A stretch of 64,000 nt of DNA from Bacteroidota bacterium (GTDB lineage: Bacteria > Bacteroidota > Bacteroidia > Bacteroidales > CAIXZF01): positions 62,001 through 126,000 of the forward strand of contig JAKLIX010000005.1 of assembly GCA_022709385.1 (NCBI GenBank), given 5' to 3'. The notes beneath the pieces were generated by a model that saw only the letters and a program-made list of their open reading frames with translations, was not told the origin of the DNA and searched no databases. Shown here in pieces: positions 5,306-60,553 of this stretch. Numbering within the stretch: position 1 is the first letter of the stretch; every line of letters begins with the position of its first letter. The position numbers and the translations under genes were made by a program.

Positions 5306-8074
5306 TCATGGAAAATAACTCCCGTTCACATCCCCCATGCAAACCGCCTTCAATGAGAATGCCGTGTGCTGCATTGCCCCGATACTGAAGGCGGGTGCCT
5401 CACAATACCAATCCCCTGCCGGGAAGGCATTCACTGCACCGATAAAGCGTTTCCCGATGTAAAGGGCGTCCAGGCTGTTGACCGCCTGGTTGTCGTCCAC
5501 GTCGGCTGCCTTCAGGGAAAGCCCCGTGAGATGGATGAGATGTACGAAATGTCTCAATACCAGCAGGGCGTCGGTCGAATTGCAGCCGCCCCAGGGGATT
5601 TCCGGAATGACCACCAGGCTGTACTGTCCCCTGCAAAGGTTTTCAAAAGAGAAACATCCCGCAGTGTCCGACTGAGTCACTGCCATTTCCAGACCGTTCT
5701 GCCGCAGCGCCACACTGCAAGCGGCGAGCCAGCTTTCCGCACTGTTGGCATATTTGATGGTACCGTCGATGGTGTATTTCCCGATACTAAGGCTATGGTT
5801 TCCGCCTTGCAGCAGACACCCGCCCTGAATGATCCCGTCGGTTCCTGTATGCCTGGCTGCAGAAAACACAGTGTCGATGAAAATATAAGCGCTGTCTGAG
5901 GCCTTCAGGTCGGCCGCCCAGACCGTCACGCTCCGTCCGCCCGGCAGGTTTTCAGCCAGGTGAGCGGCCATGCCGGTATCTCCTTCATGACTGAAGAGAT
6001 AAATCGCGTCATCCCAGTCGACACCCGTTGAGATGCTGTTGCTGATCAGGCTTCCGCCTGCCTGCACCTGGCCGGCAGTGTCGCCGATGCTGATCGTATG
6101 CAGGAACAGGACAGTGTCTGAAACAAAGGGTGGCCTGATCTCCAGACGCCATTTACCCGGGGTTCCGTGAAGGGTATCAGGCTGTGTGAGCGGCGGGTAG
6201 TTTGTTCCGTTGACCCAGTACTCATAGCCTGTCCCGCCGGTAAGCCTGACCGTGCCATTTTCCGGAAGCAGTGTCCTGAGCGACAACCTGCCGCTTCCGT
6301 TTTCGACATCAAGGTCGGTTCCGTCATAGGTCATGATGTGTCCCGGTACTTCCTCCATGATCAGCGCTCCGCTGACTTGCGGCCGGTTGACGGTGTGAAA
6401 CTGGACAAAGGCATCCCGCTGGCCATTATGATCCGGATTCAGACAAAGATGATCCAGTACGATCATCCTGTCAGGTTTGTGAAAGAGCAGGCGCCTGGTG
6501 AACTTCCTGACCCTGCTGCTGTCGTATGAAAGGCTGGCATCGCTGTTTTGGTATGCCCAGGCGGTATCTGCGGCGTATTGGTTCCATCTCCCTCGCTGGA
6601 AGGCGGGAGAGAAAATGTCGTTATAATTCATCAGTGCGGGTGAATAAATCTGTCCGCCGTCATTTGCAACAACCTCATTACCATAGAGATAAACACTACT
6701 TGAATCAAAGACGCAAAGCGAATTGTGGGCAATGGTCCGGGTGTAGTAATTTTTAAAGTGGCTTCCCCCGTAGGTATCGTAAAATCCTGCATCAATCAGC
6801 AGGGGATTGTGGTGAAATACCGCAAAAGTGTTGTTGTCGCGGTGTTCATGTGAAGCCCTTTTGGAAGGGGAGTTAAAAAACCAGACGAGTACGGCATCCT
6901 CTTCCCATGAGGTGCGGCTTACGCTCAGCCCGACCTTGTCTGCCCACCAGTTGAGGGGAGGTAAGGGTTTGGCGACCGGCGGCATGGTAAAATCCTTATA
7001 CAGCAGCTTACGAAAAACCGGAACAGTCCAGGTGATGAACTGTGCTTGCGAGTAATACTGTGCCAACCAGCGGCTGCGGTCATCCTGGAAGATCTGCGCA
7101 TGACGGTAGATCACATTGTCGGCGGACAGGCCGGTCATACCGTCGCCCAGGTGGATGGTCCAGTGGTCGGGTCTGATGAAGTACCAGTATTGGTTGATGG
7201 ATTCCTGCACCCAGGGAAGGTCGGTGTAGAAATTCTTACCAGTGGCAAAAAGCATGTCATCGAAAAGCTGGAACTGGTCCGTGAGGCTCCACATGGCGTA
7301 GGCCGCGCCCCAGTTCCAGCCGCCGTCGTCGTCGCGGTAATGCGAATAGCAGGGCAGGAATCCATTGATCCACTTGTCGTAAACCGTTTGATACCAGGAA
7401 AGGACGGTATCCTGCTGCCCGCTGCTGAGGCCGTCGGCCATATACAGCGCGAGGTTGTTGCGCATGGCAAAGACGCAGTTCAGGGCATTGTGGCTCGACA
7501 CGTAGCTGTTCCCTGCAGAAGAAAGGATGTACAGATCCATGAACTTCCTTTGCATGCGGTAATGTGCCAGGGCCAACTGCTGACGGTCGCTTGCCGGTAA
7601 GGAGTCATGGCACCAGTCGAGCAGCAGGCTGGCGGCATCACTGAACGTACGGATCAGTGTTTCGCGCTGGTACCATTCCATGGCGTCAAGGTTCACCGTA
7701 TCGAGGTATTCCGTGCATTTCCTGACCAGGAAGCGGCAACGTTTCAGCTGGAGGGGTTCATGATTCACGCGCCAGAGGAAGACTGTGAACACCGCCTGCC
7801 ACTGGGCCCATTGCGAAGACCATGTCCAGGTCCATTGGCTTGTGTCACTACCTGTCATAAACAGTTCCGGGTCGTTGATCCAGTTGTTGTTGTAGCGGTT
7901 CAGGAAATCATTGTAGGTGGCTCCGCATTCGCCCTGGAAACGGTGCTGGGCAATCCAGTCCAGTCGTCCGGCAGCAGCGTAGATCCTGGGACGGGACTGT
8001 TGAATGGCAGGGTAGTCCTGGGCAAAGGTAATCAGGGTGAAGCAGATGATTTGAATAAGTAGCAGTATTCGCAT
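5306..8074 (-). CDS. Secreted heparinase II/III-like protein with C-terminal dockerin-like module
   Basis: A 922-residue exported protein with signal peptide MRILLLIQIICFTLITFAQ. The N-terminal half is an alpha-toroid-like region (WTWTWSSQWAQWQAVF, WGAAYAMWSLTDQF). The central region ASHEHRDNNTFAVF, LLIDAGFYDTYG and TRTIAHNSLCVFD matches heparinase II/III-like lyases, so a polysaccharide-lyase role on uronic-acid glycans is likely. Residues about 771-922 are the dockerin-like module shared by four proteins here: a small regulatory-like sandwich, WGGCNSTDALLVLRHFV, then DVDDNQAVNSLDAL, and a final CMGDVNGSY. It has no T9SS sorting domain. It is divergent from the FkbM gene at 8180. TTACTTTG, one mismatch from TAnnTTTG, sits upstream on its strand. 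Confidence 0.8.
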   Translation of the reverse strand: MRILLLIQIICFTLITFAQDYPAIQQSRPRIYAAAGRLDWIAQHRFQGECGATYNDFLNRYNNNWINDPELFMTGSDTSQWTWTWSSQWAQWQAVFTVFLWRVNHEPLQLKRCRFLVRKCTEYLDTVNLDAMEWYQRETLIRTFSDAASLLLDWCHDSLPASDRQQLALAHYRMQRKFMDLYILSSAGNSYVSSHNALNCVFAMRNNLALYMADGLSSGQQDTVLSWYQTVYDKWINGFLPCYSHYRDDDGGWNWGAAYAMWSLTDQFQLFDDMLFATGKNFYTDLPWVQESINQYWYFIRPDHWTIHLGDGMTGLSADNVIYRHAQIFQDDRSRWLAQYYSQAQFITWTVPVFRKLLYKDFTMPPVAKPLPPLNWWADKVGLSVSRTSWEEDAVLVWFFNSPSKRASHEHRDNNTFAVFHHNPLLIDAGFYDTYGGSHFKNYYTRTIAHNSLCVFDSSSVYLYGNEVVANDGGQIYSPALMNYNDIFSPAFQRGRWNQYAADTAWAYQNSDASLSYDSSRVRKFTRRLLFHKPDRMIVLDHLCLNPDHNGQRDAFVQFHTVNRPQVSGALIMEEVPGHIMTYDGTDLDVENGSGRLSLRTLLPENGTVRLTGGTGYEYWVNGTNYPPLTQPDTLHGTPGKWRLEIRPPFVSDTVLFLHTISIGDTAGQVQAGGSLISNSISTGVDWDDAIYLFSHEGDTGMAAHLAENLPGGRSVTVWAADLKASDSAYIFIDTVFSAARHTGTDGIIQGGCLLQGGNHSLSIGKYTIDGTIKYANSAESWLAACSVALRQNGLEMAVTQSDTAGCFSFENLCRGQYSLVVIPEIPWGGCNSTDALLVLRHFVHLIHLTGLSLKAADVDDNQAVNSLDALYIGKRFIGAVNAFPAGDWYCEAPAFSIGAMQHTAFSLKAVCMGDVNGSYFP

Positions 8075-10198: not shown

Positions 10199-11476
10199 TC
10201 AGAAGACCGTTCTGGAACCGTTCACATCCCCGTAACACAGCCCTTTGATCTCCACCTGAACGTTGCTGCTGCCGTCGAACAGCACTTCCATATTTTCAAA
10301 GATCCAGTCGCCTGAAGGAAAGCCGTAGATCAGTCCCACAAACCTCCTCGCCGCCATCAGGGCATCCGTGGCATTGATGATATGGTTGCCGTCGAGGTTG
10401 GCAGCTTCTTCTCTCAGACCGGTCAGGGCAATGAGGCTCACAAAGTGTTTGAGTATCAGCAGGGCATCATCGGAGTTCACCCCTCCCCAGGCAATGGAGG
10501 TTGCCGGTTCAAGCCGGTAAAAACCCGGGGCCAATGCCGGAAAGGAAAAGCTACCGTTACCATCTGTGATGCTTGAATCGGCGATGGTGCAGCATCCCAC
10601 CTTGAGATACACTTTTACTCCGGCAAGGGGGGTTGAATCCGCATTGTCGTAAAACACGGTTCCGCCGAGATCTGCCAGTCCCAAAAGCGTTTCGTAAGCA
10701 ATGGCGGCATCAAAGGTTTCGTTCACCAATTGGGGAGCAACAAGCTGGGTTGCGGCGGCATTGGGGTGACTGTCCCAGGCAGATACGGCATAGACAGGAT
10801 TCAGAAATCCCTGTGCATTGGCCACTTTGTGGAAATAATCGAACACATACACATTGGGCGGAAACGGTCCGTACACCGGGTCAAGGCCTGCGGCCAGGGT
10901 ATCTTTGGCCCATTTGCTGAAACGGTGGGAACGCTGGGCTTCGGCATAGTTGGTTGCATTCTGAACAAGGGGTGCATTGGTCCAGATCACGAAAAAGTGT
11001 TCAGGATGACCGGCCATCACCGACACGAAGTTCCGCCAGTGCCATTTATAATTATAGACGCTTTTCAGTGTCGGATTCAGGGTGTCGGATGGCTGTCCTT
11101 CCGAAACAATGCTTGAGCATGGATAACAGGATTTGATCATCAGGATGGGGTTACCCGGGCAGTAATTGCAGATATCTTCGGGGTAAGCATCGGTGAAAAT
11201 GGTATGCCAGGTAGACCATTCATTGTCGTTGTAAGCAGGGAACCAGGTTTCGGTCATGCTGACAGCCTGTGAGCCCGTATATCCGTGGGCCTGGTTGTAC
11301 AGCTGGATTTGCTGTGGAACGCTGGTGTTGCTGCCATTGGGCCCCCAGATATTCCCGCCTGTGCTGTGATGCAGGAAGATGCCGTTGCGGATGACGGGAT
11401 TCTGGCTGAAAGTGTATCCAATAAAAACAAATGTCAGCAGAAAACTGATGGTTCGCGACAGACCGGAAGCATTCAT
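10199..11476 (-). CDS. Secreted SGNH-like protein with C-terminal dockerin-like module
   Basis: A 425-residue exported protein (signal peptide ending FVFIGYTFSQ). The N-terminal half begins GIFLHHSTGGNIWG, a pattern seen in SGNH/GDSL-like hydrolases, with NPILMIKSCYPCS and HFFVIWTNAPL as plausible central strands. The catalytic residues are not securely assigned. Residues about 272-425 form the shared dockerin-like module: GTVFYDNAD sandwich, WGGVNSDDALLILKHFV, LDGNHIINATDAL, and CYGDVNGS near the end. It has no T9SS sorting domain. The stop of the upstream lipoprotein gene is 3 bases away, so the two are very probably co-transcribed with the CotH gene before it. Confidence 0.7.
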   Translation of the reverse strand: MNASGLSRTISFLLTFVFIGYTFSQNPVIRNGIFLHHSTGGNIWGPNGSNTSVPQQIQLYNQAHGYTGSQAVSMTETWFPAYNDNEWSTWHTIFTDAYPEDICNYCPGNPILMIKSCYPCSSIVSEGQPSDTLNPTLKSVYNYKWHWRNFVSVMAGHPEHFFVIWTNAPLVQNATNYAEAQRSHRFSKWAKDTLAAGLDPVYGPFPPNVYVFDYFHKVANAQGFLNPVYAVSAWDSHPNAAATQLVAPQLVNETFDAAIAYETLLGLADLGGTVFYDNADSTPLAGVKVYLKVGCCTIADSSITDGNGSFSFPALAPGFYRLEPATSIAWGGVNSDDALLILKHFVSLIALTGLREEAANLDGNHIINATDALMAARRFVGLIYGFPSGDWIFENMEVLFDGSSNVQVEIKGLCYGDVNGSRTVF

Positions 11477-37893: not shown

Positions 37894-38030
37894 ACTGAAA
37901 CTTACCGAAAACTGCTTCGCATTTTCACTTAGATTCAGTATAAATAATCAGTTCCGGACAACGTTTGCGGTTTCCGGCAGTCATATTTGATTGTTTAATA
38001 ACTTTTCATTCTTTTGACAAAACCAATTCC

Positions 38031-39233
38031 ATGAAAACAACAGTCAGACTTACCGTCTTCATTTCATTCATTCTTTTCTGTTTTCCCTTTAGCGGGAAAT
38101 CCCAGGCAGGCGACAACATCATCCGGGGTTATGTTCAGTATGACAATACGGAAGGAAGTATCCTGCAACAGGTGAAAATTTATCTCACCAACCTGAGCGG
38201 GAGCAAATTAGATTCAACGACTACCAACCTGGGAGGCTACTTTGTATTTTACGGAGTATTACCCGGCAGTTTCAGGCTGGTAACCGCAGCCTCAAAACCC
38301 TGGGGCGGTGTAAGCGCTAACGACGCCCTGCTTGTTTTCCGGCATTTTGTCGAGATGGACACCCTGGAAGGCATGTCGCTCCTGGCCGCAGATGCAGACG
38401 GCAACCAGTACGTGAATGTCACGGATGCCATGGCCATCATGGCAAGGGTAACGGGTGTGAGAAATACCCTGCCGGCAGGGGATTGGTGTTTCGAGCAACC
38501 CATTGTGAATACTGGAGTTGCGCCGGCCATGGTGTATATCCACGGCCGCTGCAGGGGTGACATCGACGGCAGTCACAGCCCGGTAGTCACTCCGGGATTC
38601 AGTTGCGGAACAGGCCTGGTTGACAGCCGCAATAACGAAATATACCCCACGGTTCAGATCGGAAGCCAGTGCTGGACGGCAAAAAGCATGAATATCGGCA
38701 GCCAGATCCAGGGAAATCAGGCAGCCTCGAACAACCAGGTTATTGAAAAGTATTGTTATAATAACATCCAGGATAACTGCAGGAATTACGGGGCCCTTTA
38801 CGACTGGAATGAAATGATGCAATATGCCGTTAACGAAGGGGCACAGGGGATTTGTCCGACCGGCTGGCATGTTCCGACCGACAATGAATGGTGCAGCATG
38901 CTGAATGCGGTTGAACCGGGAATTTCCTGCACACAGACCGGACTGCAGGGCATGAAGGTGGGCGGAAAGCTGAAGGAAGCAGGATATGAACACTGGAACT
39001 CCCCGAACACCGATGCCACAAATGAAGTCGGTTTCACGGTTCTTGGTGCAGGAATGGGGTACAACAACAATTTTTTCAGTGCGATACTCAGCACCGGAGC
39101 CATCTGGACTTCCACCCAGCATACTTACCAGAACAATGCATGGTACCGTTCATTCAGCAGCAACCACGGACAGGTGATGCGCAACGGTTTATCGAAATCG
39201 AACAGGGTTTCCGTCAGGTGCATCCTTGATTGA
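38031..39233 (+). CDS. FISUMP-domain protein with internal dockerin-like module
   Basis: About 400 residues from the ATG at 38031, which gives the signal peptide MKTTVRLTVFISFILFCFPF...SQ; the frame is open from 37965 but without a signal sequence. Residues 33-182 are the shared dockerin-like module (GYVQYDNTEG sandwich, WGGVSANDALLVFRHFV, ADADGNQYVNVTDAM, CRGDIDGSH). Residues about 190-400 are the FISUMP (Fibrobacter major paralogous) domain: EIYPTVQIGSQCWTAKSMN, GALYDWNEMM, CPTGWHVPTDNEW and SVRCILD at the end, with several cysteines. No T9SS domain. Here the module is N-terminal, unlike the heparinase-like and SGNH-like proteins. The function is probably surface binding. Confidence 0.8.
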   Translation: MKTTVRLTVFISFILFCFPFSGKSQAGDNIIRGYVQYDNTEGSILQQVKIYLTNLSGSKLDSTTTNLGGYFVFYGVLPGSFRLVTAASKPWGGVSANDALLVFRHFVEMDTLEGMSLLAADADGNQYVNVTDAMAIMARVTGVRNTLPAGDWCFEQPIVNTGVAPAMVYIHGRCRGDIDGSHSPVVTPGFSCGTGLVDSRNNEIYPTVQIGSQCWTAKSMNIGSQIQGNQAASNNQVIEKYCYNNIQDNCRNYGALYDWNEMMQYAVNEGAQGICPTGWHVPTDNEWCSMLNAVEPGISCTQTGLQGMKVGGKLKEAGYEHWNSPNTDATNEVGFTVLGAGMGYNNNFFSAILSTGAIWTSTQHTYQNNAWYRSFSSNHGQVMRNGLSKSNRVSVRCILD

Positions 39234-45054: not shown

Positions 45055-45341
45055 ACAAAAAAATTTCGGATAATCTCCTGACTGCATCTCATAGATTGCT
45101 TACTAAGAAACCGCTTGCGGATACCGTTTAAAACCTGTTCAAAACACTGCAAATCACATATCGATAAAATTAAGATGCATCGGTGGCTCTTTCTTTGGAC
45201 ATACGGCCACGACGTCATCCCACGCGGATTGTACTGATTTTTGTTATTTTTTTGTTAATGCACTCATTTCCTGACTCTTTAAACATTTCTTGATTGTTTC
45301 ATCCAAGACTTCATTTCATTACGTCAGGCGATTCATTAAAT

Positions 45342-45348
45342 AAGGAGG
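45342..45348 (+). promoter_or_regulatory. Strong Shine-Dalgarno sequence of the giant gene
   Basis: AAGGAGG, 5 bases before the ATG at 45354, is a near-perfect Shine-Dalgarno. Bacteroidota genes usually lack one, so it both fixes the start and is unusual in this window. Confidence 0.75.
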
Positions 45349-45353
45349 CCCTT

Positions 45354-48300
45354 ATGTCAAAATTTTCCATTTTCTCATTTATTTTCCTCATGGTGTGCCT
45401 GTCACGGACCTTTGGTCAGATTTCAGGCGACAGCGTGGTATGCAGTGGCGAAACGGAACTCTACTCAGGTCCGGTGATTCCCGGTGCAACATATTCATGG
45501 AATGTCACGGGAGGGACGATCTCCGGTCCTTCTAACACCGGCAGTGTCACCATCCATTGGCCGAATGCCGGCAGCGGCTCCATCCTGCTAACCGTCTTTT
45601 TGCCCAACAACACGCAGCAAACCCATGTGTTTCAGGTGATGGTGCATTCCCTTCCCCAGCCCGTGATCACCCACCAGCCCTATCCGGGCTGTCCGCCGGG
45701 CCATGGCAGGGGCGGCGGTGCCGGAAGCCCTGACCAGGGTGGCGGAAATGACTGTGAATTGGTTTGCAAGGGTGCCACCATTACCTACACTACCGCACTG
45801 AACCCGGGCAACACTTACCTGTGGACCTCGGGAGGCGCTTTTTCCGTTACCGGGGCCAATACAAATACCGTAGTGGTAAGCTGGGACAACAGTCCTTTCG
45901 GATTTCTCACCGTGTATGAGACCAACCAGTGGGGTTGCACGGATTCAGCCACCATCTGTATCGAAAAAGTGGATCTTCCGGTGGCTTCGTTTACACATCA
46001 GCTTAACGTCTGTAAATTCTCCAATGTGAATTTCACCAACCTGAGTACCGGAGCTACCTCCTTTCAGTGGTACTTCGGCGACGGCGGCACCTCCACCCAG
46101 CAGCATCCCGCTCATGCATACAGCAACAGCGGAACATATACCATCACCCTGATCGCAACCAACGATTGTTTCTGCGCCGATACTTTCCAGAGTGTAATCC
46201 AGGTGGATTCCTTTCCCGGTCCTGAAATCAGCTGTCCTTCAACCGTTTGTGCCTTTGATACGGCCACATATACCAGTGCTGCCGGCAATTGCACCCACAA
46301 CTGGTTTGTGACCGGCGGCACGATCATCGGACCATCCAACCAGCCTTCGGTAAGCGTTGTTTGGGGAGCCGGTCAGACCGGCAGCCTGGGCCTGACTGTT
46401 TCCGGCTGCGGCGGGACCTGCAGCGACACTACCTGGCTTATTATTCCCATCATACCGGCTAACGGGACCATCAGCGGCCCGCCCAAGGTTTGTCCGGGCG
46501 AATGTGCCACATACAGCCTGCCGAAATTCAGCGGGGCCACTTACAGCTGGAGCCTGAACAACGGCAGTTGCGGAGCGATCCAGGATTCCTCCTGTTGTGA
46601 ACAGATCACCATTTGCTGGCCTGCCACAAGCTTTTTCTGCACGGATACGCTGACTGTAACCTTCTGGGATCAGTTCCTCGGCTGTGGCGGAACGGCTCAA
46701 ATGGTCATCCGGCTCCGCCCCGAACTCAGTATCTTTGGTCAAAAGGAAGGATGTTCGAACGGAATCTCAAGCTTCTTTGCTTTTGGAGGCATCAATTGTA
46801 TGTGGAACGTCAGTCCCGCCGGACCGGCCTACTCCCCCGGGCCATCCCCTTCGCTCAACGTGAACTGGAACGGACTGACCGGTACCTATGTGGTAAGCGC
46901 CTATCCTGTCAATCCCAACCAGGTTTGCAATGACTCAGCCACCGTGCTTGTCAATGTGATCAACCCGCCTGCAGCACCGGTGATTACCGGTGACAGCATC
47001 GTATGCCCCGGCTCGGTGCATCAATACTGCGCAACGGGTTCAGGCGTCATACAATGGACCGTGACGGGAGGCAGCCCGTCCAACGGCAGCGGTAACTGTA
47101 TCTCCGTCACCTGGGGCAATACCCCTCCTTTCGCTATCCAGGCTGTCGCTCAGATGGCCCAGTCACCCTATTGCACTTCCGATCCCGCCGTGATGAATAT
47201 TATCTTGCCGGTCAACCCGCCGGTCCCTGCCTTCAGCGGCTCAGCCATTGCATGCGCCAACGCGGTCAGCAATTATTCCACTCCTACCCTGTATCCGGCC
47301 GGGGCCGCGTTCACCTGGACACTTACCCCTTCCAATGCGGGAACCATCATTTCAGGTCAGGGAAGCCCGGCAATACAGGTGGAATGGGGTAATAATGCAC
47401 CCCAGACAGTGGTCCTCAGTCTGAATGTCGTGTTGTGCGGGCAGACTGTCGGCGCTGCCTTCAATATCCAGTTGAATCCCGCTCCCAATCCGGTGATCGT
47501 ACAAACGGGCAACCTTTGTCCCGGTAGTCCTGCCCAACTCAGCGCCACGGGCGGCAGTTTCGTTGCCTTTCAATGGAGCGGTCCCGGAGGATTCACGGCA
47601 ACAGGAAATCCCGTAAGCATCACCCAGGCCGGTCTTTACCAGGTCACCGTCACCGATGCAGGCGGCTGTTCAGGACTCACACAACTGCTGGTTCATGAAA
47701 CAGGAAGCCCGGTGGCCGCCATTAGCGCACAAAATCCATTATCTTACTGTATAGGAGCCTCTTACAATGTGACACTTTGTGCCTTGGGAAACCCGAATTA
47801 CAGCTATGCCTGGTCCAATGCAGCCACTTCCCAGTGTATTACGGTATCGAATCAGGGCAATTACCAGGTGACCGTGACCGACCTGTCGAACGGTTGCTTC
47901 GCTGTCTCCAACCTGCTTACTGTCTCGGAAATTCCCTGTCAGCCGGATACAGGCACCTGTATTCCCACGGGCAGCGTAAGTTTCACGTATTCAGGATGTA
48001 ATCCCGTTTCCTTCCTGAATACATCTGTCAACGCAAGCTCATTCTCCTGGAATTTCGGGGATCTCAGCTCCTCGAACCAGACCAATCCGACGCACACCTA
48101 TAATGCGGCAGGATTCTTCCTTGTGTCGCTTTACGGCTATGTCCCCGATGCTTCCGGTACCGACTCCTGCCTGCTGGTGGATACCGCCCTGATCGAAATA
48201 CCCCTGCTTCCTCGCTTTAATTATACGGCAGGCTGTTATGGCGACTCGGCCTGCTTCACCGACAACAGTGTCTTTACGGCCGGAAACAACATCACTTCCT

Positions 48301-51300
48301 GGTTCTGGGATTTCGGCGACGGCAACAATTCAAGCCTTCAGAATCCCTGCCACCTGTACGCCACCAGCGGTACCTTCATCGTTACCCTCACCATTTCCAA
48401 CGGTCCCTGCACCACCTCGTGGTCAGACACCCTTGTGGTGCTGCCGCAACCCGCTGCGGCCTTCACTTTCAGCAATGCAAACTGCGTGAACAGCCCGGTA
48501 TTTTTCAGCGACCAGTCTACAACCAACATCAACTACTGGAACTGGAATTTCGGCAATGCGGGCACTTCCCTGAACCAGAATCCGGCCCAGGCATATTCAC
48601 TTGCTGCCACCTATCCTGTTACCCTGATTGTCCATGACATCAACGGCTGTTACGACACCATCACCATCCCGGTCACTGTGAATCCGAACAATCTCGGCGG
48701 CAATATCACCGCCTTCCCCGACAGCATCGTCTGTGCCGGCACTCCCGTGATCCTGGCGGCCCCTGCCTGTTCAGGCTGTACTTACCTCTGGAGCAACGGC
48801 AGCACCAACGACAGCATCACTGTTACTACCAGCGGGTTTTACCAGGTGCAGGTCAGCGATCAGAACGCCTGTACCTATTCAACTTATATCAGGGTGATTG
48901 TAAACCAGTTGCCCTCCGCCCAGATCATCGGACCCACCGATGCCTGCATCAACGATTTTGTGTCTTTGTCGGTTCTGTATAATCCCAACTGGCTGTATTC
49001 CTGGATCAGCAACGACACCAGCGTGAACGGCCAGACGGCACCCGGTGTCTTTCTGACAGCTGCCTCACCCGGCCTTATCAATTTCAGTGTGGTCCTAACA
49101 GACACGGTGACGGGCTGCACTGATACCACCGCTGTCCACCTGTTCAGCGTGCATCCGGTACCAGGGTCTCCTGTCATCACTCCCCTTACGGCCACAACGG
49201 TGTGCGAAGGCGACAGCATCCTGCTGCTGATGACCCATCCCGACTCCACAATCAGCCTGAGCTGGAGTACCGGTGAAGTGAACGATACCCTGGTGGTCAC
49301 CAAAGACGGCTGCTATGATGCGATTGCCACCAATATTTACGGCTGCAGCAGCACTACCACCTTCTGCGTCACCGTAAACGAATTGCCTGAGTTGTGTTCC
49401 TTTTACGAAGGTTGCTTCGACACCTGTGCACCCTATACCATCGCCGGTCCGGCCGGCGGAAGCTCCTACCAGTGGCTGCTGAACGGCATCCCGATCACCG
49501 GTGCCGACAGTCAGTACTATACCGCAACGCTTAGCGGAGCATATTCACTTATCGTTACCAACAGTTTCGGATGTACGGATACCACAGGGGTGCTCAACCT
49601 GAACCTCTATCCCTGTCCGGGCGATGCCTGCGTGGAATTTCTCATCGACACGGTGTATTGTGATCCCGCCACCGGTCAATATGCCATGCAATTCCACATC
49701 ATCAACCATACCAATATCGTATTGACCGAAATCCATCTGCAATTGCTGCCACCCAACCTTGGGGCAGGCTATTTCCCTGGCGCTTTTATTCAAACGGTCC
49801 AGCCCGGAGATACCTCGGCCACAATGAGCACGGTCATTTCCAACGCAACGGCCGGTGATACGCTATGTTTCCGTACCAATGTGTTTACCTATGATGAAAA
49901 CAACATTGAAGTACTGGTCTGCTCATCCGACACCCTCTGCTTTGTACTTCCACCCTGCGGAAATGACACCACCTGCTGTTCGCTTGATTTTATCAGCGAC
50001 TCGCTCTGGTGTGTCACCGATCCTACAGGGGCGTCCGCTTATCACTTTAATATTGTGGTGGAAGGTTGCGGCATCCTGGATGTCCAGCTGGTCAGCCAGG
50101 GCAATATCACACTGAACAGTCCTTATGTGCTGAATGGAGGGCAGATCACCATCAGCGGGATATATTATCCCACTAACATTACATATCTCTGCCTGCTTTT
50201 CATGATGCATGATTCCACTACCTATTGTGCCGACACTATTGTATGTTTCGACCTGCCTCCTTGTCCGCCTCCCGTACTGCCTTGTGAAATGGGGTACAAT
50301 CACCTCATTTGTGCAGGACAATCTTCTGTATTTCAGCAATTTATTGTTTTTCCCGGCGTGACATATACCTGGCAGTTTCCGGGTGGAAGCCCATCTTCAG
50401 CGACAGGAGCGGGACCTCATACCATCACCTACTTAAGCCCGGGGGTCTATCCCGTTCAGCTTAGCATGAGCAACCAGCAAGGCACAGTAATCTGCTCAGA
50501 TTCCATTACAGTACTCGCTGCACCGATCGCAACGATCACACAGTCAGGCAATTTCCTTGTCGCATCGCCACCGGGCATGATGTATCAATGGTACACCTAC
50601 CCTGTTACCCAGGCCACGCTGATCAGCGGGGCCACTGCACAAACCTACAATCCTTCCTCCAGTGGTATTTACTGTGTAGTGGTGCAGAATTCCGTCGCTT
50701 GTGCGGATACAACCTGCATTGACTTTATGTATGAAGATGCCTGCGTTGCATTCCTCATTGATACAGTTTACTGTGATCCGGCCACCGGACAGTACGGGAT
50801 GCAGTTCCATATCATCAACCAGACCAACATCGTACTGACCGAAATCCACCTGCAGCTTCTGCCTCCCAACCTCGGAGCGGGTTATTTCCCGGGTGCGTTT
50901 ATTCAAACGGTCCAACCCGGAGATACCTCGGCTCTGATGACCACGGTCATTTCCAACGCAACGGCCGGTGACACGCTTTGTTTCCGTACGAATGTCTTTA
51001 CATATGACCCAGTTGGAACAGAGATACTGGTCTGCTCATCCGACACCCTCTGCTTCGTGCTTCCACCCTGCGGAAATGACACCTCCTGCTGTTCGCTCGA
51101 TTTTGTAAGCGACTCGCTCTGGTGTGTCACCGATCCCACAGGAGCACCAGCTTATCACTTTAATATCGTGGTGGAAGGCTGCGGTACCCTGGATGTGCAG
51201 CTTTCCAGTCCTGGAAATATCAGCCTGAACGGCCCCTTTATCCTGACCGGAGGACAGTTCACCCTCAGCGGCACCTATTATCCGGGCAGTAATACCGCAC

Positions 51301-53306
51301 TTTGCCTGCTTTTTATAATGCATGATTCCACTGCGTATTGTGCCGACACCATTGTCTGTTTCGACCTGCCTCCCTGTCCGCCTCCTTCACTCCCCTGCGA
51401 ATGGGGATTCAATCACTTTATCTGCGCCGGACAGTCCTCTGTATTCCAGCACTTCTATTTTGTCCCCGGTGTCAGCTACAACTGGCAGTTCCCCGGAGGC
51501 ACTCCTTCAACGGCAGCCGGAACCGGGCCGCATACCGTCACCTACCCGAATCCGGGAGTCTATCCCGTACAGTTGACCATGAGCAACCAGCAGGGCAGCG
51601 TGATCTGCATCGATTCCATTACCGTATATCCGGCTCCCGTGGCTTCCGTTCTGCAGACAGGCCTCAGCCTCACCGCATCACCCGCCGGAATGTCCTACCA
51701 GTGGTACCAGTATCCGGTCAGCCAGGCCACCCTGATCAGCGGAGCCGTTTCACAAACCTATGTCCCCGGTGTCAGCGGAACTTTCTGCGTGGTGGTACAA
51801 AATGCGGCCGGCTGCTCCGATACGGCCTGTATCGACTTTCTCTACAACGATCCATGTGAAGGACTGCAGGCCCTGTTCAGTGTCAGTGCCAACTGGCTGA
51901 CGGCTCATTTCACCGACCTGAGTACGGCCACCCCTCCCCTGTTCATCACGGGCTGGAACTGGAACTTCGGAGATCCGGCTTCCGGTGTAAACAATACCTC
52001 TGCCTTACAGAACCCCGTCCATCATTTCACCGCCACGGGATATTACACTGTCTGCCTGGTAATTACGGCCATCAACGAAGCCACCGGTTCTTTCTGCTAT
52101 GATACTGTCTGTATGGAGATCTACGTGAAGAAAAGACCGAAACTGGTGGGAACCGTCGTTTACCTTAATGATGTGCTCACTCCCATGCCCAATACCCTGG
52201 TCAGCCTGCTGTCCGGAGGCAATGTGATTGCGGTGGACACCACCGGACCGGACGGCTCATGGGAATTCAGTCCGGTCAACGAGGGCACTTACACCCTGCA
52301 GGTAAATACCGCCAAACCCTGGGGAGGCGTGAACGCCACCGATGCCCTGATCATTCTCAAACATTTTGTACAGCTCAGCCTTTTGCAGGGGTTGAAGCTG
52401 CAGGCCGCCAATGTCGACCTGAACCCGGTGGTCAATTCCATCGATGCCCTGATGGTCAGCCGCAGGTTCACCGGCCTGATGTCTTCCTTCCTGGTAGGCG
52501 ACTGGATGATTGAACATCCGGTGGTGAACTTCGCCGGTGACAGCATGTTCCGGAGCATTCATGCCCTTTGTTTCGGAGATGTCAATGGATCCTACGTCCC
52601 GCCTGCACTGAAGCCCTCACCGGAACTCAGGCTTGAACAGCATGGGCAGGTGATTGCCGTTCAGGGGGCAGCGGAAATCGAGCTTCCCCTTAGCTTTAAA
52701 AACGATGTGCAGGTTTCGGCCGTTTCCCTGGTGCTCGACTTCCCCGCACAAGCCATGGAAGTGCTGGATATCACTGCAGGCACCGATCCTGAACGGCTCG
52801 TATACCATGTCAGCGACGGGCAGGCCAGGATCGCATGGTTTACTTCGGAAAACAAGCATTGGCCGGCCGGGGAAGCGGTATTTGTATTGCGGCTGAAACT
52901 GAATGAAGGAACGGCAGCCATACTCACGGATGACTTTTTAAACTGCGGAAACGAAAGCAGCATCGCTGGTTTCGACGCCATGACCCTGCACGGGCAAACC
53001 ATACAGTACCCGGGAATCAGCTTTGTGGGCAAGGCTTTTGAAGCCGGGCAGAATGTCCCCAATCCCTTCTCAGGCAATACGGTCATTCCCTGGTATCAAC
53101 CGGAAGAGGGACATATCAGACTGACTGTTCATGATATACTCGGGAAAGAGATCAGGAACCTGCACGACGGGATGCTTCCGGCCGGAACGCACTCGGTGGT
53201 GCTGGAAGCAGCCGGGCTGGAGCGCGGTATTTATTTTTACCGTATTGAGTATTCAGCAAAACACAGCGCAGCCAAGGAAAGCAGAAGGATCAGCCTGGTG
53301 AAATAA
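45354..53306 (+). CDS. Giant T9SS surface protein: PKD/Ig-like repeats, tandem duplication, dockerin-like and cohesin-like domains
   Basis: A 2650-residue exported protein; the start at 45354 is fixed by the Shine-Dalgarno and the signal peptide MSKFSIFSFIFLMVCLSRTFGQ (the frame is open from 45294). Residues about 20-1420 are PKD-like and Ig-like domains, with at least four clear PKD domains (FQWYFGDGGTS, FSWNFGD, WFWDFGDGNNSS, WNWNFGNAG). Residues 1424-1794 and 1795-2165 are a near-identical 371-residue tandem duplication. A further PKD domain (WNWNFGDPASG) follows. Residues about 2266-2414 are the dockerin-like module (WGGVNATDALIILKHFV, NVDLNPVVNSIDAL, CFGDVNGSY). Residues about 2421-2555 look cohesin-like. 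The end, from QNVPNPFSGN to SLVK, is a T9SS sorting domain. It is a likely cell-surface adhesin or scaffold and is cysteine-rich. It is monocistronic. Confidence 0.85.
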   Translation: MSKFSIFSFIFLMVCLSRTFGQISGDSVVCSGETELYSGPVIPGATYSWNVTGGTISGPSNTGSVTIHWPNAGSGSILLTVFLPNNTQQTHVFQVMVHSLPQPVITHQPYPGCPPGHGRGGGAGSPDQGGGNDCELVCKGATITYTTALNPGNTYLWTSGGAFSVTGANTNTVVVSWDNSPFGFLTVYETNQWGCTDSATICIEKVDLPVASFTHQLNVCKFSNVNFTNLSTGATSFQWYFGDGGTSTQQHPAHAYSNSGTYTITLIATNDCFCADTFQSVIQVDSFPGPEISCPSTVCAFDTATYTSAAGNCTHNWFVTGGTIIGPSNQPSVSVVWGAGQTGSLGLTVSGCGGTCSDTTWLIIPIIPANGTISGPPKVCPGECATYSLPKFSGATYSWSLNNGSCGAIQDSSCCEQITICWPATSFFCTDTLTVTFWDQFLGCGGTAQMVIRLRPELSIFGQKEGCSNGISSFFAFGGINCMWNVSPAGPAYSPGPSPSLNVNWNGLTGTYVVSAYPVNPNQVCNDSATVLVNVINPPAAPVITGDSIVCPGSVHQYCATGSGVIQWTVTGGSPSNGSGNCISVTWGNTPPFAIQAVAQMAQSPYCTSDPAVMNIILPVNPPVPAFSGSAIACANAVSNYSTPTLYPAGAAFTWTLTPSNAGTIISGQGSPAIQVEWGNNAPQTVVLSLNVVLCGQTVGAAFNIQLNPAPNPVIVQTGNLCPGSPAQLSATGGSFVAFQWSGPGGFTATGNPVSITQAGLYQVTVTDAGGCSGLTQLLVHETGSPVAAISAQNPLSYCIGASYNVTLCALGNPNYSYAWSNAATSQCITVSNQGNYQVTVTDLSNGCFAVSNLLTVSEIPCQPDTGTCIPTGSVSFTYSGCNPVSFLNTSVNASSFSWNFGDLSSSNQTNPTHTYNAAGFFLVSLYGYVPDASGTDSCLLVDTALIEIPLLPRFNYTAGCYGDSACFTDNSVFTAGNNITSWFWDFGDGNNSSLQNPCHLYATSGTFIVTLTISNGPCTTSWSDTLVVLPQPAAAFTFSNANCVNSPVFFSDQSTTNINYWNWNFGNAGTSLNQNPAQAYSLAATYPVTLIVHDINGCYDTITIPVTVNPNNLGGNITAFPDSIVCAGTPVILAAPACSGCTYLWSNGSTNDSITVTTSGFYQVQVSDQNACTYSTYIRVIVNQLPSAQIIGPTDACINDFVSLSVLYNPNWLYSWISNDTSVNGQTAPGVFLTAASPGLINFSVVLTDTVTGCTDTTAVHLFSVHPVPGSPVITPLTATTVCEGDSILLLMTHPDSTISLSWSTGEVNDTLVVTKDGCYDAIATNIYGCSSTTTFCVTVNELPELCSFYEGCFDTCAPYTIAGPAGGSSYQWLLNGIPITGADSQYYTATLSGAYSLIVTNSFGCTDTTGVLNLNLYPCPGDACVEFLIDTVYCDPATGQYAMQFHIINHTNIVLTEIHLQLLPPNLGAGYFPGAFIQTVQPGDTSATMSTVISNATAGDTLCFRTNVFTYDENNIEVLVCSSDTLCFVLPPCGNDTTCCSLDFISDSLWCVTDPTGASAYHFNIVVEGCGILDVQLVSQGNITLNSPYVLNGGQITISGIYYPTNITYLCLLFMMHDSTTYCADTIVCFDLPPCPPPVLPCEMGYNHLICAGQSSVFQQFIVFPGVTYTWQFPGGSPSSATGAGPHTITYLSPGVYPVQLSMSNQQGTVICSDSITVLAAPIATITQSGNFLVASPPGMMYQWYTYPVTQATLISGATAQTYNPSSSGIYCVVVQNSVACADTTCIDFMYEDACVAFLIDTVYCDPATGQYGMQFHIINQTNIVLTEIHLQLLPPNLGAGYFPGAFIQTVQPGDTSALMTTVISNATAGDTLCFRTNVFTYDPVGTEILVCSSDTLCFVLPPCGNDTSCCSLDFVSDSLWCVTDPTGAPAYHFNIVVEGCGTLDVQLSSPGNISLNGPFILTGGQFTLSGTYYPGSNTALCLLFIMHDSTAYCADTIVCFDLPPCPPPSLPCEWGFNHFICAGQSSVFQHFYFVPGVSYNWQFPGGTPSTAAGTGPHTVTYPNPGVYPVQLTMSNQQGSVICIDSITVYPAPVASVLQTGLSLTASPAGMSYQWYQYPVSQATLISGAVSQTYVPGVSGTFCVVVQNAAGCSDTACIDFLYNDPCEGLQALFSVSANWLTAHFTDLSTATPPLFITGWNWNFGDPASGVNNTSALQNPVHHFTATGYYTVCLVITAINEATGSFCYDTVCMEIYVKKRPKLVGTVVYLNDVLTPMPNTLVSLLSGGNVIAVDTTGPDGSWEFSPVNEGTYTLQVNTAKPWGGVNATDALIILKHFVQLSLLQGLKLQAANVDLNPVVNSIDALMVSRRFTGLMSSFLVGDWMIEHPVVNFAGDSMFRSIHALCFGDVNGSYVPPALKPSPELRLEQHGQVIAVQGAAEIELPLSFKNDVQVSAVSLVLDFPAQAMEVLDITAGTDPERLVYHVSDGQARIAWFTSENKHWPAGEAVFVLRLKLNEGTAAILTDDFLNCGNESSIAGFDAMTLHGQTIQYPGISFVGKAFEAGQNVPNPFSGNTVIPWYQPEEGHIRLTVHDILGKEIRNLHDGMLPAGTHSVVLEAAGLERGIYFYRIEYSAKHSAAKESRRISLVK
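49623..50735 (+). repeat. Tandem duplication unit 1 in the giant gene
   Basis: A 1113-base unit (371 codons) from the codons for DACVEFLIDTVYC to CIDFMYE. It is repeated immediately by 50736-51848 with very high protein similarity and exactly equal length. Contents: a cysteine-rich beta region (HIINHTNIVLTEIHLQLLPP, GDTLCFRTNVFTYD), then a PKD-like part (YTWQFPGGSPS) and an Ig-like part (MMYQWYTYPVTQATLI). Confidence 0.9.
50736..51848 (+). repeat. Tandem duplication unit 2 in the giant gene
   Basis: Second 1113-base unit, from DACVAFLIDTVYC to CIDFLYN. It keeps the reading frame and boundaries of unit 1. Stretches such as the GAFIQTVQPGDTSA region are nearly unchanged also at base level, showing a recent in-frame duplication. 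Confidence 0.9.
52149..52595 (+). other. Dockerin-like module (giant protein copy)
   Basis: Codes for residues 2266-2414. A regulatory-like sandwich (GTVVYLNDVL, DGSWEFSPV, GTYTLQV), then WGGVNATDALIILKHFV, a calcium-loop pattern DLNPVVNSIDAL, GDWMIEHP and CFGDVNGSY. The same architecture is coded at 5309-5764 and 10202-10663 (minus strand) and 38127-38576 (plus strand). Confidence 0.75.
52617..53012 (+). other. Cohesin-like domain
   Basis: About 130 residues between the dockerin-like module and the T9SS domain, with the cohesin-type pattern: ELPLSFKNDVQVSAVSLVLD, then AMEVLDITAG, GQARIAWFTSEN, and GEAVFVLRLKLNEG. The order of strands (a stretch with alternating hydrophobic residues, then the LEV-like strand, then RIAWF, then the F.L.LK strand) is what cohesins show, but identity cannot be measured here. 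Confidence 0.5.
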
Positions 53307-55455: not shown

Positions 55456-57183
55456 CTACAGGTCAGATAATCCATTGGATATCAGCCATTCCAAATCCCG
55501 GTGCTGCTGCATCATGGCTTCCAGATGCTCCCTGATTTCCTGTGCAAGGGACGGCATTGCGGCATGCTGCTTCAGGCATTGCAGCATTTCCAGGGGCAGC
55601 AGCCATTCCCTCTGAAGATGTTTTACCTGATGCCAGAGCATGGGAAGCACTTCAGGATCAGTCAATTGTTCGGCCACTCCCCTTACAAGCTGGTATTTAC
55701 CGTGTAAATCGAGGCTTTCGGGCGAATGGACGATCTTGTGGGTCTTTTCCCCGGGTACGGGGAATGAGAAACCGAAGCCTTCAGGATCGGCCGGGCCGGG
55801 AAATGCAGATATAATTTCCGACCCGACAGCCATATCATAGGCACCCCATTCCGGTCGAAACAGCACGTCTTCTCCCATGCGTACCTCACAACTGGAAAAA
55901 GTTATCAGCAGGTTCTTTCCGTCTTTTCTTAAGATATGTTCAGGTACACCCTTCACCTCCACCCCGGAATCGAACACCAGCCTGCATTCCCTGCCGTGAA
56001 CGACACCGGACTGCAGGAAATCCCCTTCTGAGAGCAGTTCCGGCGGCACGGAAACATGCTGAAGCTTCCCGGCAGGAGATCCAAAACCGTGGGGATGGCG
56101 GTCTTTCCCGTGACCGGGCAGCATGTGGTGATGGTAGTTGAGGGTCACGGGGCCCGTCCACTGAAGGTAAACGGGTTCACCGGCGCTGTTGCATCGAAAG
56201 GCTGTAAGCGTACCGGAAACCTGCAGGCCGGAAGCATATACAACCGTAGCCGTATGTCCCGATCCCAGGGCCTTGTCCAGCGCGGCTTTCCCCCCGGTCT
56301 GCAGGGCCATGGTATTGCCAAACTCTTCCAGTACCCGGCCCAGATGTTCAAAATCAGGCGTCACAAAGAGCTGGGGTTGTTTGGTAGTAATGTCGAAACC
56401 GGTATGCATGGCATCCAGCGTATAGGGAAGCTTTTTCACGCCATTGTTGAGTGCGGAGAAACTTTCCCCGATAGAGGATAACAGGCCGGCTCCATAGATC
56501 TTCGGTTGCTTCAGATCCCCGATGAGGCCGTATTCCACCGTCCACCAGTGCAGATTCCGTATCAGTGCCATCTCCGATGGAGGGCCCATGCTTTTCTCAA
56601 TACTTTGCAGATTCAGCAAGGCCTTTTGTATGTCGGCGGCAGTAGAATACGGATCGGCCTTGACAATACTCAGGTGGCGTATGGCTTCGTAGAGGTCGTA
56701 GTCCCTTGCCGAGCTGAATGCCTTGCTGCCGAGCTCCCCGAAACGCACCAGGTAGGCGGCATATTCCGGATCGGCAATGATGGGCGCATGGCCGGCAGCT
56801 TCATGAATGATATCCGGAGCCGGGGTGTATTCCACCTGGTCGATGGGACGGATATCCGCAGCGATCACCAGGACATGGTATGCCTGGAACTCCATGAACG
56901 CCGAGGGAGGGATGAAGCCATCCACGGCAACCGCAGCCCAGCCTATCTCTTTCAGGATACGGTTCATCCCGTACATATGGGGGATATAATCGAGACTGAT
57001 CCCGGTTTTACCGAGGCCATCGAGGTAAGAACCGTGAGCCACCTTACTGAGATATTTCACATTCTGCCGCATCACGTAGCGCCAGATGGCGTGATCCTGC
57101 GCAGTATAATCATTGTAGGGCTGGTCAATCACCAGGCTCATCAGGTGTTTGGGCAGTTTGTCAAGGACTTCGTTGGTTTCCAT
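55456..57183 (-). CDS. phhA: Phenylalanine-4-hydroxylase-type aromatic amino acid hydroxylase, extended
   Basis: A 575-residue cytosolic enzyme that converts phenylalanine to tyrosine using O2 and a pterin. The catalytic domain is in residues about 20-330. The iron ligands are predicted to be His127 and His132 in PDIIHEAAGHAP and Glu217 in HWWTVEYGL. The remaining 240 residues (TVVYASGLQVSGTLTAF, VSVPPELLSEGDFLQSG, RGVAEQLTDPEVLPML) form an extra domain not present in the classical 260-residue bacterial PhhA; I do not recognise its function, although similar long forms are usual in Bacteroidota. Last gene of the aromatic operon, 9 bases after the flavin reductase gene. Confidence 0.9.
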   Translation of the reverse strand: METNEVLDKLPKHLMSLVIDQPYNDYTAQDHAIWRYVMRQNVKYLSKVAHGSYLDGLGKTGISLDYIPHMYGMNRILKEIGWAAVAVDGFIPPSAFMEFQAYHVLVIAADIRPIDQVEYTPAPDIIHEAAGHAPIIADPEYAAYLVRFGELGSKAFSSARDYDLYEAIRHLSIVKADPYSTAADIQKALLNLQSIEKSMGPPSEMALIRNLHWWTVEYGLIGDLKQPKIYGAGLLSSIGESFSALNNGVKKLPYTLDAMHTGFDITTKQPQLFVTPDFEHLGRVLEEFGNTMALQTGGKAALDKALGSGHTATVVYASGLQVSGTLTAFRCNSAGEPVYLQWTGPVTLNYHHHMLPGHGKDRHPHGFGSPAGKLQHVSVPPELLSEGDFLQSGVVHGRECRLVFDSGVEVKGVPEHILRKDGKNLLITFSSCEVRMGEDVLFRPEWGAYDMAVGSEIISAFPGPADPEGFGFSFPVPGEKTHKIVHSPESLDLHGKYQLVRGVAEQLTDPEVLPMLWHQVKHLQREWLLPLEMLQCLKQHAAMPSLAQEIREHLEAMMQQHRDLEWLISNGLSDL

Positions 57184-57192
57184 AATAAATTG

Positions 57193-58080
57193 TTAATCAG
57201 CCATCAGCAGGCAAAGCGCTTCCCAGTTCAGTCCGGATGCCAGCATGCTTTTGGCGGCCAGTTGAAAGGACTTGCTGCGTTCGGCAGGCTCTGGACAGCC
57301 CGGGAAGAGGTCTCGGAAACGGGGATCGTCCATCAATGCGCGTATATCCCTTTCATCAGGAAGGCGTTCATTGTTCCCGAGTTTTCCAAGTTCATTGCCG
57401 TTCAACAAGATGCTGTGCCTGATCCGTTCCGGGAGACTGTCGATGCCGATGCCGGTTTTTTCCAGGGGCTTATCCACCTTAAACAGTTGATCTCCAAAGG
57501 CTTTTATGTAATATGCTCCGCCCATGCGCCCGACCAAACGGATGCGGTTCGGGTCGATATTTCCCCGGGCATCAAGTACCGCTTCATCCACGTGGACCAT
57601 TTTGATGGTACAGATCACCAGGTTGGCGGCTCCCCCGCCCTCACCCGTCTCAATGACTTCTCTGACCTCACACTCGAATTGCACCGGCGACTCCGCCACG
57701 CGGAAAGGTTTGACGCTGAGCGAGGGAAGAGCGGTGAAGCCGGCTTTTTCAAATTCATTCACCCCTTTGGCGTATTCCGTGCTGGCCAGGTTCACCTGCT
57801 CCACCATATCGAAGGTCACCACATTGATGACCACTTCGGGTACTTCCTTGATATTCTGATACGTATGCTTGGTGGTATTGTCCCTGCCGCGCCTTGAGGG
57901 GGAGAAAATCAAAGTGGACGGATTCACCCCAAAAGCATTGAAGAAGCTGAAAGGTGAGAGGTTGGGCCTGCCGTTCGCGTCGATGGTGCTGGCAAAGGCG
58001 ATGGGACGGGGTGCCACGGCCTCAAGCATCAGGCGGTGCAGTTGCTGATGCGATACCGATGCCGGATCGATCGTTTTCAT
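57193..58080 (-). CDS. Flavin reductase-family protein
   Basis: About 295 residues from the ATG at 58080. The FMN-binding split-barrel is seen: PRPIAFASTIDANGRPNLSPFSFFNAFG, PPTLIFSPSRRG-like (STLIFSPSRRGRDNTTKHT) and NVVTFDMVEQVNLAST. In related clusters it accompanies homogentisate-pathway genes; its substrate is unknown. It may be a flavin reductase or a flavin-dependent enzyme that acts on a pathway intermediate. Its start overlaps the fahA stop by 4 bases (ATGA), showing tight translational coupling. Confidence 0.85.
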   Translation of the reverse strand: MKTIDPASVSHQQLHRLMLEAVAPRPIAFASTIDANGRPNLSPFSFFNAFGVNPSTLIFSPSRRGRDNTTKHTYQNIKEVPEVVINVVTFDMVEQVNLASTEYAKGVNEFEKAGFTALPSLSVKPFRVAESPVQFECEVREVIETGEGGGAANLVICTIKMVHVDEAVLDARGNIDPNRIRLVGRMGGAYYIKAFGDQLFKVDKPLEKTGIGIDSLPERIRHSILLNGNELGKLGNNERLPDERDIRALMDDPRFRDLFPGCPEPAERSKSFQLAAKSMLASGLNWEALCLLMAD

Positions 58081-59390: not shown

Positions 59391-59409
59391 CTCTCTGATT
59401 ATATATACT

Positions 59410-60507: not shown

Positions 60508-60553
60508 TGGTGATGTGATGTGGGGTTGGGGTTGGTTATTTTATTTTAGGGGG

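What the first reader, a model, noticed from the sequence alone, without database searches (positions are those of the whole stretch)
52149..53303. Possible cohesin/dockerin-like scaffold with a T9SS anchor
Seen: of the four module-bearing proteins, only the giant protein also has a domain with a cohesin-like strand pattern (residues about 2421-2555) and a T9SS sorting domain. The other three lack T9SS signals, so they would need another way to stay on the surface. Inferred: dockerin-like modules of the lyase-like, SGNH-like and FISUMP proteins could bind the cohesin-like domain, giving a surface complex for glycan processing. A module and a cohesin-like domain in the same chain would also allow giant-to-giant polymerisation. 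Established: cohesin-dockerin scaffolds are known in clostridial cellulosomes; I know of no described T9SS version like this.
Basis: inference. Interest (0 to 1): 0.9.

Follow-up and report, generated by a model that had tools for sequence, protein, structure and literature searches.

The report
Type-IX-anchored, cellulosome-like docking system
The tail of this giant protein joins a dockerin-related module with one calcium loop apparently split in two, a domain predicted to have the cohesin fold, and a type IX secretion signal; the genome holds about 97 matches to each of the two domain kinds, which would let proteins that lack a sorting signal plug onto surface scaffolds, much as in a cellulosome.

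Summary

Of 83 dockerins in fetched stretches, 40 of 41 in tail-bearing proteins are followed by a cohesin; 0 of 42 without a detected tail are. Tail-less proteins include C25 and M14 peptidases and heparinase-like lyases.

The module is no standard dockerin. It is predicted to be nested in a CnaB-like domain, and half of calcium loop 1 sits about 82 residues downstream (GDVNGS): found in 98 modules, none with a contiguous loop 1, and in 0 of 27 others.

Two cohesin classes exist. The giant's is class B, found after dockerins; class A makes up the scaffolds. In the smallest system found, two of three tail-less dockerin genes sit in a run with the only cohesin gene (class A, T9SS tail). So the window dockerins more likely bind class A than the giant's domain. 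Binding is untested. A tail-anchored scaffoldin was already proposed for Ca. Stygibacter. New variant.

The parts
45294..53306 (+). Giant protein (2670 aa as ORF; likely start ATG at 45354): signal peptide, PKD repeats, X-dockerin, cohesin-like domain, T9SS tail
   Evidence: ORF; translation; PF18911 7 stretches; signal peptide by a crude script; start inferred from P0005 length
52140..52307 (+). First part of the CnaB/transthyretin-like X module (residues 2283-2338)
   Evidence: PF13620 2284-2338 E 0.0077, below its cut-off; model strands 9-64, CnaB/TTR matches spanning model residues 6-154
52323..52343 (+). Calcium loop 1, second half (GGVNATD, loop positions 6-12)
   Evidence: conserved N 68/71 and D 70/71 in the PF00404 set; loop assignment is inference
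52410..52445 (+). Calcium loop 2, contiguous (NVDLNPVVNSID)
   Evidence: sequence; residue counts of loop 2
52503..52574 (+). Last strands of the X module, after the dockerin helices (model 130-153)
   Evidence: DSSP of model; the 95-residue CnaB domain 8bdw_A aligned over 88 residues within model 6-154
52575..52592 (+). Calcium loop 1, first half (GDVNGS, loop positions 1-5), moved downstream
   Evidence: D 71/71, N or D 71/71, S 64/71; motif in 98 modules without contiguous loop 1 and in 0 of 27 others; loop assignment is inference
52623..53033 (+). Cohesin-fold domain, class B (residues 2444-2580)
53058..53303 (+). T9SS type A sorting domain (Por_Secre_tail)
   Evidence: PF18962 residues 2589-2658 E 1.7e-4, TIGR04183 22.6 bits, both just below curated cut-offs
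5306..8074 (-). Heparinase II/III-like lyase ending in an X-dockerin, no T9SS tail
   Evidence: PF07940 E 1.7e-12, NF045571 E 7.6e-36 but far below its cut-off; module modelled at pLDDT 94
5309..5773 (-). X-dockerin module of the lyase, ends GDVNGSYFP at the C-terminus
10199..11476 (-).
   Evidence: translation; dockerin 10205-10501 at 126 bits; Pfam sees only the X module
37965..39233 (+). FISUMP protein: signal peptide, X-dockerin (about 38121-38582), Fib_succ_major domain, no T9SS tail
   Evidence: PF09603 E 1.1e-30; dockerin 38289-38582

Best explanation
The tail of the giant is likely one element of a T9SS-anchored, cellulosome-like docking system, in which dockerin-bearing proteins without a sorting signal would be held at the surface by class A cohesins of tail-bearing scaffold proteins.

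Shown by sequence: the dockerin modules follow one plan, an X (CnaB-like) module with dockerin repeats and a downstream GDVNGS-type motif; about half are followed by a cohesin-like domain and a T9SS tail, and the rest sit in proteins without a detected tail; multi-cohesin proteins with T9SS tails exist in the genome.

Predicted: the dockerin is inserted in the CnaB fold, and the domain after it has a cohesin fold.

Inferred: GDVNGS completes calcium loop 1; dockerins bind class A cohesins in trans and need calcium. The class B cohesin next to the tail is either a second docking site or an in-chain partner of its own dockerin. The giant is then an anchored PKD-rich protein that can itself plug into scaffolds, not the scaffold for the other three window proteins. 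How the tail-less proteins cross the outer membrane is unexplained.
For: Genome counts: 97 dockerin matches (134 of 134 candidates scored), 97 cohesin matches (110 of 121 scored), at least 150 CTDs (150 of 273 scored) and SprA.

In 96 ORFs from the fetched stretches: 40 of 41 tail-bearing dockerin proteins have a cohesin right after the dockerin, 0 of 42 without a detected tail do; scaffold-like proteins with 3-9 cohesins. Classes A 48 and B 42.

Tail-less proteins include a C25 peptidase, M14, two Hepar_II_III and a metallophosphatase.

The same-family genome G296 has 46 PF00404 dockerins and 86 A3 cohesins. Of the other 38 relatives, G299 has 38 and 1; the remaining 37 have 0-2 and 0-10.

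In G152, 2 of 3 tail-less dockerin genes form a same-strand run with the only cohesin gene (class A, SdrD repeats, CTD). In G066, G267, G051 and G062 a dockerin-cohesin-CTD gene lies in a run with a 3-6-cohesin gene.

Loop exclusion: motif in 98 modules without contiguous loop 1, in 0 of 27 others. Folds.
Against: No binding was tested. Genome G287 has two split-dockerin proteins and no cohesin at E 1e-3. Genome G299 has 38 dockerins (the 20 fetched are canonical) but only 1 (A3) or 6 (PF00963) cohesins.

In the 296-genome sample 47 of the 76 other genomes with the dockerin profile lack the cohesin profile; many of those hits are weak or cover only the first 63 or so model positions. PF00963 sees only 1 of 34 cassette cohesins. 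A seed-only class A profile sees 8 of 34 at E below 1e-3, and not the giant's.

Model 1 has pTM 0.84 over three domains, which would also fit in-chain packing of cohesin and dockerin. In G013 and G034 the post-dockerin cohesin scores higher with class A than B. Tail-less proteins have no known way out. One of the 42 tail-less frames (170 aa) seems to hold a cut tail.
Confidence: 0.62

Rival explanations
1. The class B cohesin is only a partner of the dockerin in the same chain: dockerin and cohesin clasp each other as a rigid spacer before the T9SS tail, and no proteins are recruited through it.
For: A cohesin follows the dockerin directly in 40 of 41 tail-bearing dockerin proteins; pTM 0.84 for the three-domain model; genomes G172 and G184 have one cohesin match each, in the same chain as a dockerin, there of the contiguous-loop kind.
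Against: 42 of 83 dockerins have no cohesin after them; G152 has dockerins and a cohesin only on separate proteins; scaffold cohesins are a separate class.
Confidence: 0.2
2. The X-dockerin is itself a surface-retention or export tag that replaces the T9SS tail and has no cohesin partner.
For: It stands at the C-terminus in place of a CTD in 25 of 71 proteins, including a C25 peptidase, a family that elsewhere often carries CTDs (the last point from general knowledge); G287 has it without a cohesin match.
Against: In 34 of 71 proteins it stands before a CTD (Pfam sees 31 of 34 CTDs at E 0.01), where a second tag would be redundant; cohesins expand with it in the two family members.
Confidence: 0.1
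3. Dockerin-like and cohesin-like domains are only structural building blocks that expanded together by duplication of the cassette, without a specific interaction.
For: Cohesin- and dockerin-like domains occur in non-cellulosomal proteins (general knowledge); cassettes duplicate as a unit (A5, 34 members), which by itself produces co-occurrence.
Against: The downstream D and N/D are kept in all 70 own modules scored although they lie about 82 residues from the other half; class A cohesins in G152 and the scaffolds are not part of the cassette.
Confidence: 0.08

Closest known systems
Candidatus Stygibacter (Cloacimonadota) cellulosome-like complex, PMC8542988 (passages read)
   Same: Signal-peptide enzymes with C-terminal dockerins including a C25 peptidase; a large cohesin-repeat protein with a CTD, cited to a T9SS review; interaction inferred from sequence.
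   Different: Other phylum; the passages I saw do not mention a split or nested dockerin, a dockerin-cohesin-CTD cassette or two cohesin classes. Its sequences were not compared here.
Clostridial cellulosome, type I cohesin-dockerin (e.g. 1ohz, 4dh2, 6kge)
   Different: T9SS tails as anchors (cellulosome anchors elsewhere recalled as SLH or sortase); first calcium loop split; dockerin predicted nested in a CnaB-like domain; cohesin directly after the dockerin in tail-bearing proteins.
X-dockerin modules of clostridial scaffoldins (4u3s_B, 4wi0_B; weak matches)
   Same: An Ig-like X module paired with a dockerin.
   Different: Here the dockerin lies inside the X module, before its last strands; that X precedes the dockerin in those proteins is recalled.
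Archaeoglobus fulgidus non-cellulosomal cohesin (2xdh)
   Same: Best PDB cohesin match by sequence of both alignments searched (A2 and A4).
   Different: Archaeal protein; its surroundings were not examined.
Dockerins reported by PF00404 in Bacteroidota single-cell genomes of cockroach gut (PMC10266427, passages read)
   Same: Dockerin-domain proteins in Bacteroides, Alistipes and another Bacteroidales genome.
   Different: Cohesin reported there only in a Christensenellales genome; no T9SS link drawn in the passages.

Membership tests
Cohesin domain | Cohesin fold | tested here: met
   [not shown]
Cohesin domain | Sequence recognised by the family profile PF00963 | tested here: not met
   Giant's domain not hit; 1 of 34 cassettes. 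The alignment profile does hit 2xdh_A at 2.6e-7
Dockerin type I | Two contiguous F-hand calcium loops | tested here: not met
   Loop 2 contiguous; loop 1 not contiguous in 70 of 70 own modules scored. Filed as dockerin-related, not as a canonical type I dockerin
Dockerin type I | Sequence relation to known dockerins | tested here: met
   A1 profile hits 2ccl_B 2.5e-7, 1ohz_B 1.3e-6 and others; Foldseek 4uyq_B TMt 0.75, rmsd 1.9
Cellulosome-like system | Multi-cohesin scaffold and enzyme-borne dockerins in one genome | tested here: met
   Proteins with 3-9 cohesins; dockerin-bearing peptidases and lyases
Cellulosome-like system | Cohesin binds dockerin, calcium-dependent | not testable with these tools
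   No complex prediction or assay available
Cellulosome (cellulose-degrading) | Cellulases and cellulose-binding modules | not tested
   No glycoside hydrolase family in the dockerin proteins scanned, but no systematic CAZyme search
T9SS type A cargo | Signal peptide and Por_Secre_tail at the C-terminus, T9SS present | tested here: met
   Giant: (PF18962 and TIGR04183 both slightly under their cut-offs; signal peptide by a crude script); SprA over cut-off
T9SS type A cargo | Same, for the lyase, SGNH-like and FISUMP proteins | tested here: not met
   No CTD family; lyase and SGNH-like end right after the dockerin

The most novel reading that the evidence does not exclude
A hitch-hiking secretion system: X-dockerins with a split calcium loop bind cohesins of T9SS cargo already in the periplasm, so that dozens of proteins without a sorting signal ride through the type IX translocon on their anchored carriers and are displayed as a surface complex; the class B cohesin acts as the in-chain gate or second socket.
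Probability: 0.25. Interest if true: 0.93.

Novelty: new variant of a known kind. Interest (0 to 1): 0.77.

Why it matters
If right, Bacteroidota have a cellulosome-like organisation of surface enzymes built on the type IX secretion system. That would explain how many exported proteins without T9SS signals in this genome could stay on the surface, and it poses a testable question about co-export. A dockerin nested in a CnaB-like domain, with one calcium loop assembled from two distant pieces, would be a new form of the module. It could offer a new orthogonal binding pair for protein engineering.

Tried and rejected
Rejected: the giant as the scaffold for the other three window proteins (one class B cohesin only). 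Rejected: the cohesin resemblance as chance. Not used as proof: co-occurrence in the 296-genome sample (29 of 37 cohesin genomes against 47 of 258 others, own genome left out, p 6e-13), because shared ancestry and single-chain cassettes inflate it; likewise the rank correlations in the 39 relatives (0.46 and 0.40).

Led nowhere: PF00963 alone for the giant; the coordinates of the models were not available, so the distance of GDVNGS to the first calcium site was not measured; PMC3035643 (Peer et al. 2009, known from a reference list) is not held. Literature searches. They cover only the open PubMed Central subset, so absence there is weak. Papers seen as passages: PMC8542988, PMC10266427, PMC5831590, PMC8810776, PMC9763041, PMC12098361; the rest as listings.

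Selection to tell: the 18 neighbourhood regions were chosen, so they are not a random sample. Among the 8 sample genomes other than the own one with dockerin-profile hits above 60 bits, five (G066, G267, G051, G062, G152; G051 and G062 share a genus) have a cohesin gene next to the dockerin gene, two (G013, G034, one genus) have further cohesins in the same or a cut-off protein, and one (G287) has none. One search scored at most 16 and at most 14 candidates per genome. In one search three of 18 neighbourhood dockerins were left unscored; of the 27 modules without the motif, 20 met the script's strict rule for a contiguous loop 1 and 7 did not, though by eye these read as contiguous (four printed, three). 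For G296 three motif variants were missed by the stricter pattern and counted. C1_327019, a poor module, was left out of A1 and. Class labels rest on two profiles made from this genome's own sequences.
Full report
OBSERVATION. The ORF at window 45294-53306 (+) encodes a PKD-rich giant. Its last 390 residues hold a CnaB/SdrD_B-like X module, a dockerin match, a further domain and a Por_Secre_tail. Three other window proteins carry the same X-dockerin and no detected T9SS domain: the heparinase II/III-like lyase (5306-8074 -), the FISUMP protein (37965-39233 +), and the 425-aa protein at 10199-11476 (-), which PF00404 misses and the family profile finds at 126 bits.

THE DOCKERIN IS NOT STANDARD. 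In the 71 PF00404 matches of the genome the first calcium loop lacks its first half. The sequence typically starts GGVNATDAL, and a motif of the type GDVNGS stands downstream, in 69 of 71 cases 80-84 residues after the N of the first half-loop. Its D is kept in 71 of 71, N or D in 71 of 71, S in 64 of 71. In register with loop 2 these are positions 1-5, those missing upstream. The exclusion test found the motif in 98 modules, none with a contiguous loop 1 (70 own, 19 of G296, 9 of other genera), and not in 27 others (20 of G299, 1 of G296, 6 of other genera): 20 of the 27 have a contiguous loop 1 by the strict rule and 7 by eye; 3 were not scored. In the lyase module modelled alone (A6; pLDDT 94, block 151-160 with most of the motif 96), CnaB, transthyretin and carboxypeptidase-D-type domains align almost whole (for example 89 of 95 residues of 8bdw_A, 78 of 82 of 3e8v) across model residues 6-155. 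A dockerin (4uyq_B) aligns over 62 columns at rmsd 1.9. So the dockerin helices (74-118) are predicted to be inserted before the last strands of the X domain, and GDVNGS follows the last strand.

GENOME CENSUS. 97 dockerin matches (two partial or weak) and 97 cohesin matches (110 of 121 candidates scored). In the fetched stretches I found 83 dockerins and 90 cohesins in 96 ORFs. Of 41 dockerin proteins with a T9SS tail, 40 have a cohesin directly after the dockerin; the remaining one has a domain of 18.2 bits there with the profile, below the cut-off used. Of 42 without a detected tail none has a cohesin there, and 3 have one before the dockerin. Of these 42, 29 end within four residues of the module, 10 carry a FISUMP domain after it, 2 have a short extension, and one 170-aa frame seems to hold a cut tail. 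Scaffold-like proteins include a 6522-aa chain with nine cohesins followed by dockerin-cohesin-CTD, a 1219-aa chain with four cohesins and a CTD, a 609-aa chain with three and a CTD, and an 8081-aa frame with five cohesins (cut by the stretch) and a PF18962 match. Two profiles separate class A (48 domains) from class B (42 domains). The tail-less dockerin proteins include a C25 peptidase, M14 peptidases, two Hepar_II_III lyases, a metallophosphatase, Kelch and beta-helix proteins. Of 71 frames, 63 could be tested for a signal-peptide-like start by a crude script; 61 show one, none with a lipobox.

OTHER GENOMES. Of 40 relatives including the own genome, the own one (71 PF00404 dockerins, 97 cohesins by A3) and the same-family G296 (46, 86) stand out. 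G299 has 38 dockerins (20 of 20 fetched are canonical) and 1 cohesin by A3 (6 by PF00963). The other 37 have 0-2 and 0-10. In a 296-genome phylum sample, own genome included, the dockerin profile hits 77 and the cohesin profile 38. In G152, with three dockerin matches (6 of 6 candidates scored) and one cohesin match (8 of 8 scored), two tail-less dockerin proteins (CotH-like and DMFA2_C) lie in a same-strand run with the single cohesin protein, which is class A with SdrD repeats and a T9SS tail; the third, elsewhere, carries a polysaccharide deacetylase domain. In G066, G267, G051 and G062 a dockerin-cohesin(B)-CTD gene is in a run with a gene of 3-6 cohesins, class A by score (in G066 with one single-cohesin gene between). 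G287 has split dockerins without a cohesin match. SprA is over cut-off in all six genomes checked. Relatives covering at least 88% of the giant's 396-residue tail occur in 77 further proteins at E below 1e-28, with varied domains in front; those with a source name are Bacteroidota. The nearest named carriers of the giant itself are MAGs called Bacteroidales bacterium Ja_bin-4767 and Sphingobacteriales bacterium D1_MAG_00006.

MECHANISM. The pattern fits docking in trans: proteins either carry a T9SS tail or rely on a dockerin, and tail-bearing class A cohesin proteins exist to hold the latter. Class B cohesins are found after dockerins in tail-bearing proteins; whether they are sockets or in-chain partners is open. 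The giant is a tail-bearing PKD protein that may plug into class A scaffolds, and it is not the best candidate to hold the other three window proteins. How tail-less proteins leave the periplasm is unexplained; co-export bound to a carrier is possible and untested.

KNOWN OR NEW. A cellulosome-like complex with a CTD-bearing cohesin protein was proposed for Ca. Stygibacter (PMC8542988; passages read). Dockerins have been listed in some Bacteroidota single-cell genomes (PMC10266427; passages). PMC5831590 (passages) states that its Bacteroidetes genome, consistent with others, lacks cohesins and dockerins. My searches listed no paper whose title or abstract start concerns split or nested dockerins or the cassette, within an open subset only. 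I rate this a new variant of a known kind.

Noticed in passing
window 55456-61888 (-): A run of likely tyrosine/phenylalanine catabolism genes: biopterin-dependent hydroxylase, flavin reductase, fumarylacetoacetase, HPPD-like glyoxalase, homogentisate dioxygenase-like.
   Followed up: no
window 28803-32744 (+): Two tandem Omp28-like proteins (below the family cut-off) with T9SS tails; a related Omp28-like protein elsewhere (L041:10299-11855 -) ends in an X-dockerin instead of a tail.
   Followed up: partly
window 39243-45027 (-): A large PAS/GAF hybrid histidine kinase and a 5TMR-LYT/PAS protein lie directly beside the giant, on the other strand.
   Followed up: no
[not shown]
   Followed up: no
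G299 loci L101-L120: A genome of the same order has 38 PF00404 dockerins; the 20 fetched have two full loops and mostly end the protein, with few cohesins in the genome: apparently a separate expansion.
   Followed up: partly
G000, 10 of 71 PF00404 dockerin proteins: Fib_succ_major (FISUMP) domains repeatedly follow an X-dockerin in tail-less proteins; the role of this pairing is unknown.
   Followed up: no
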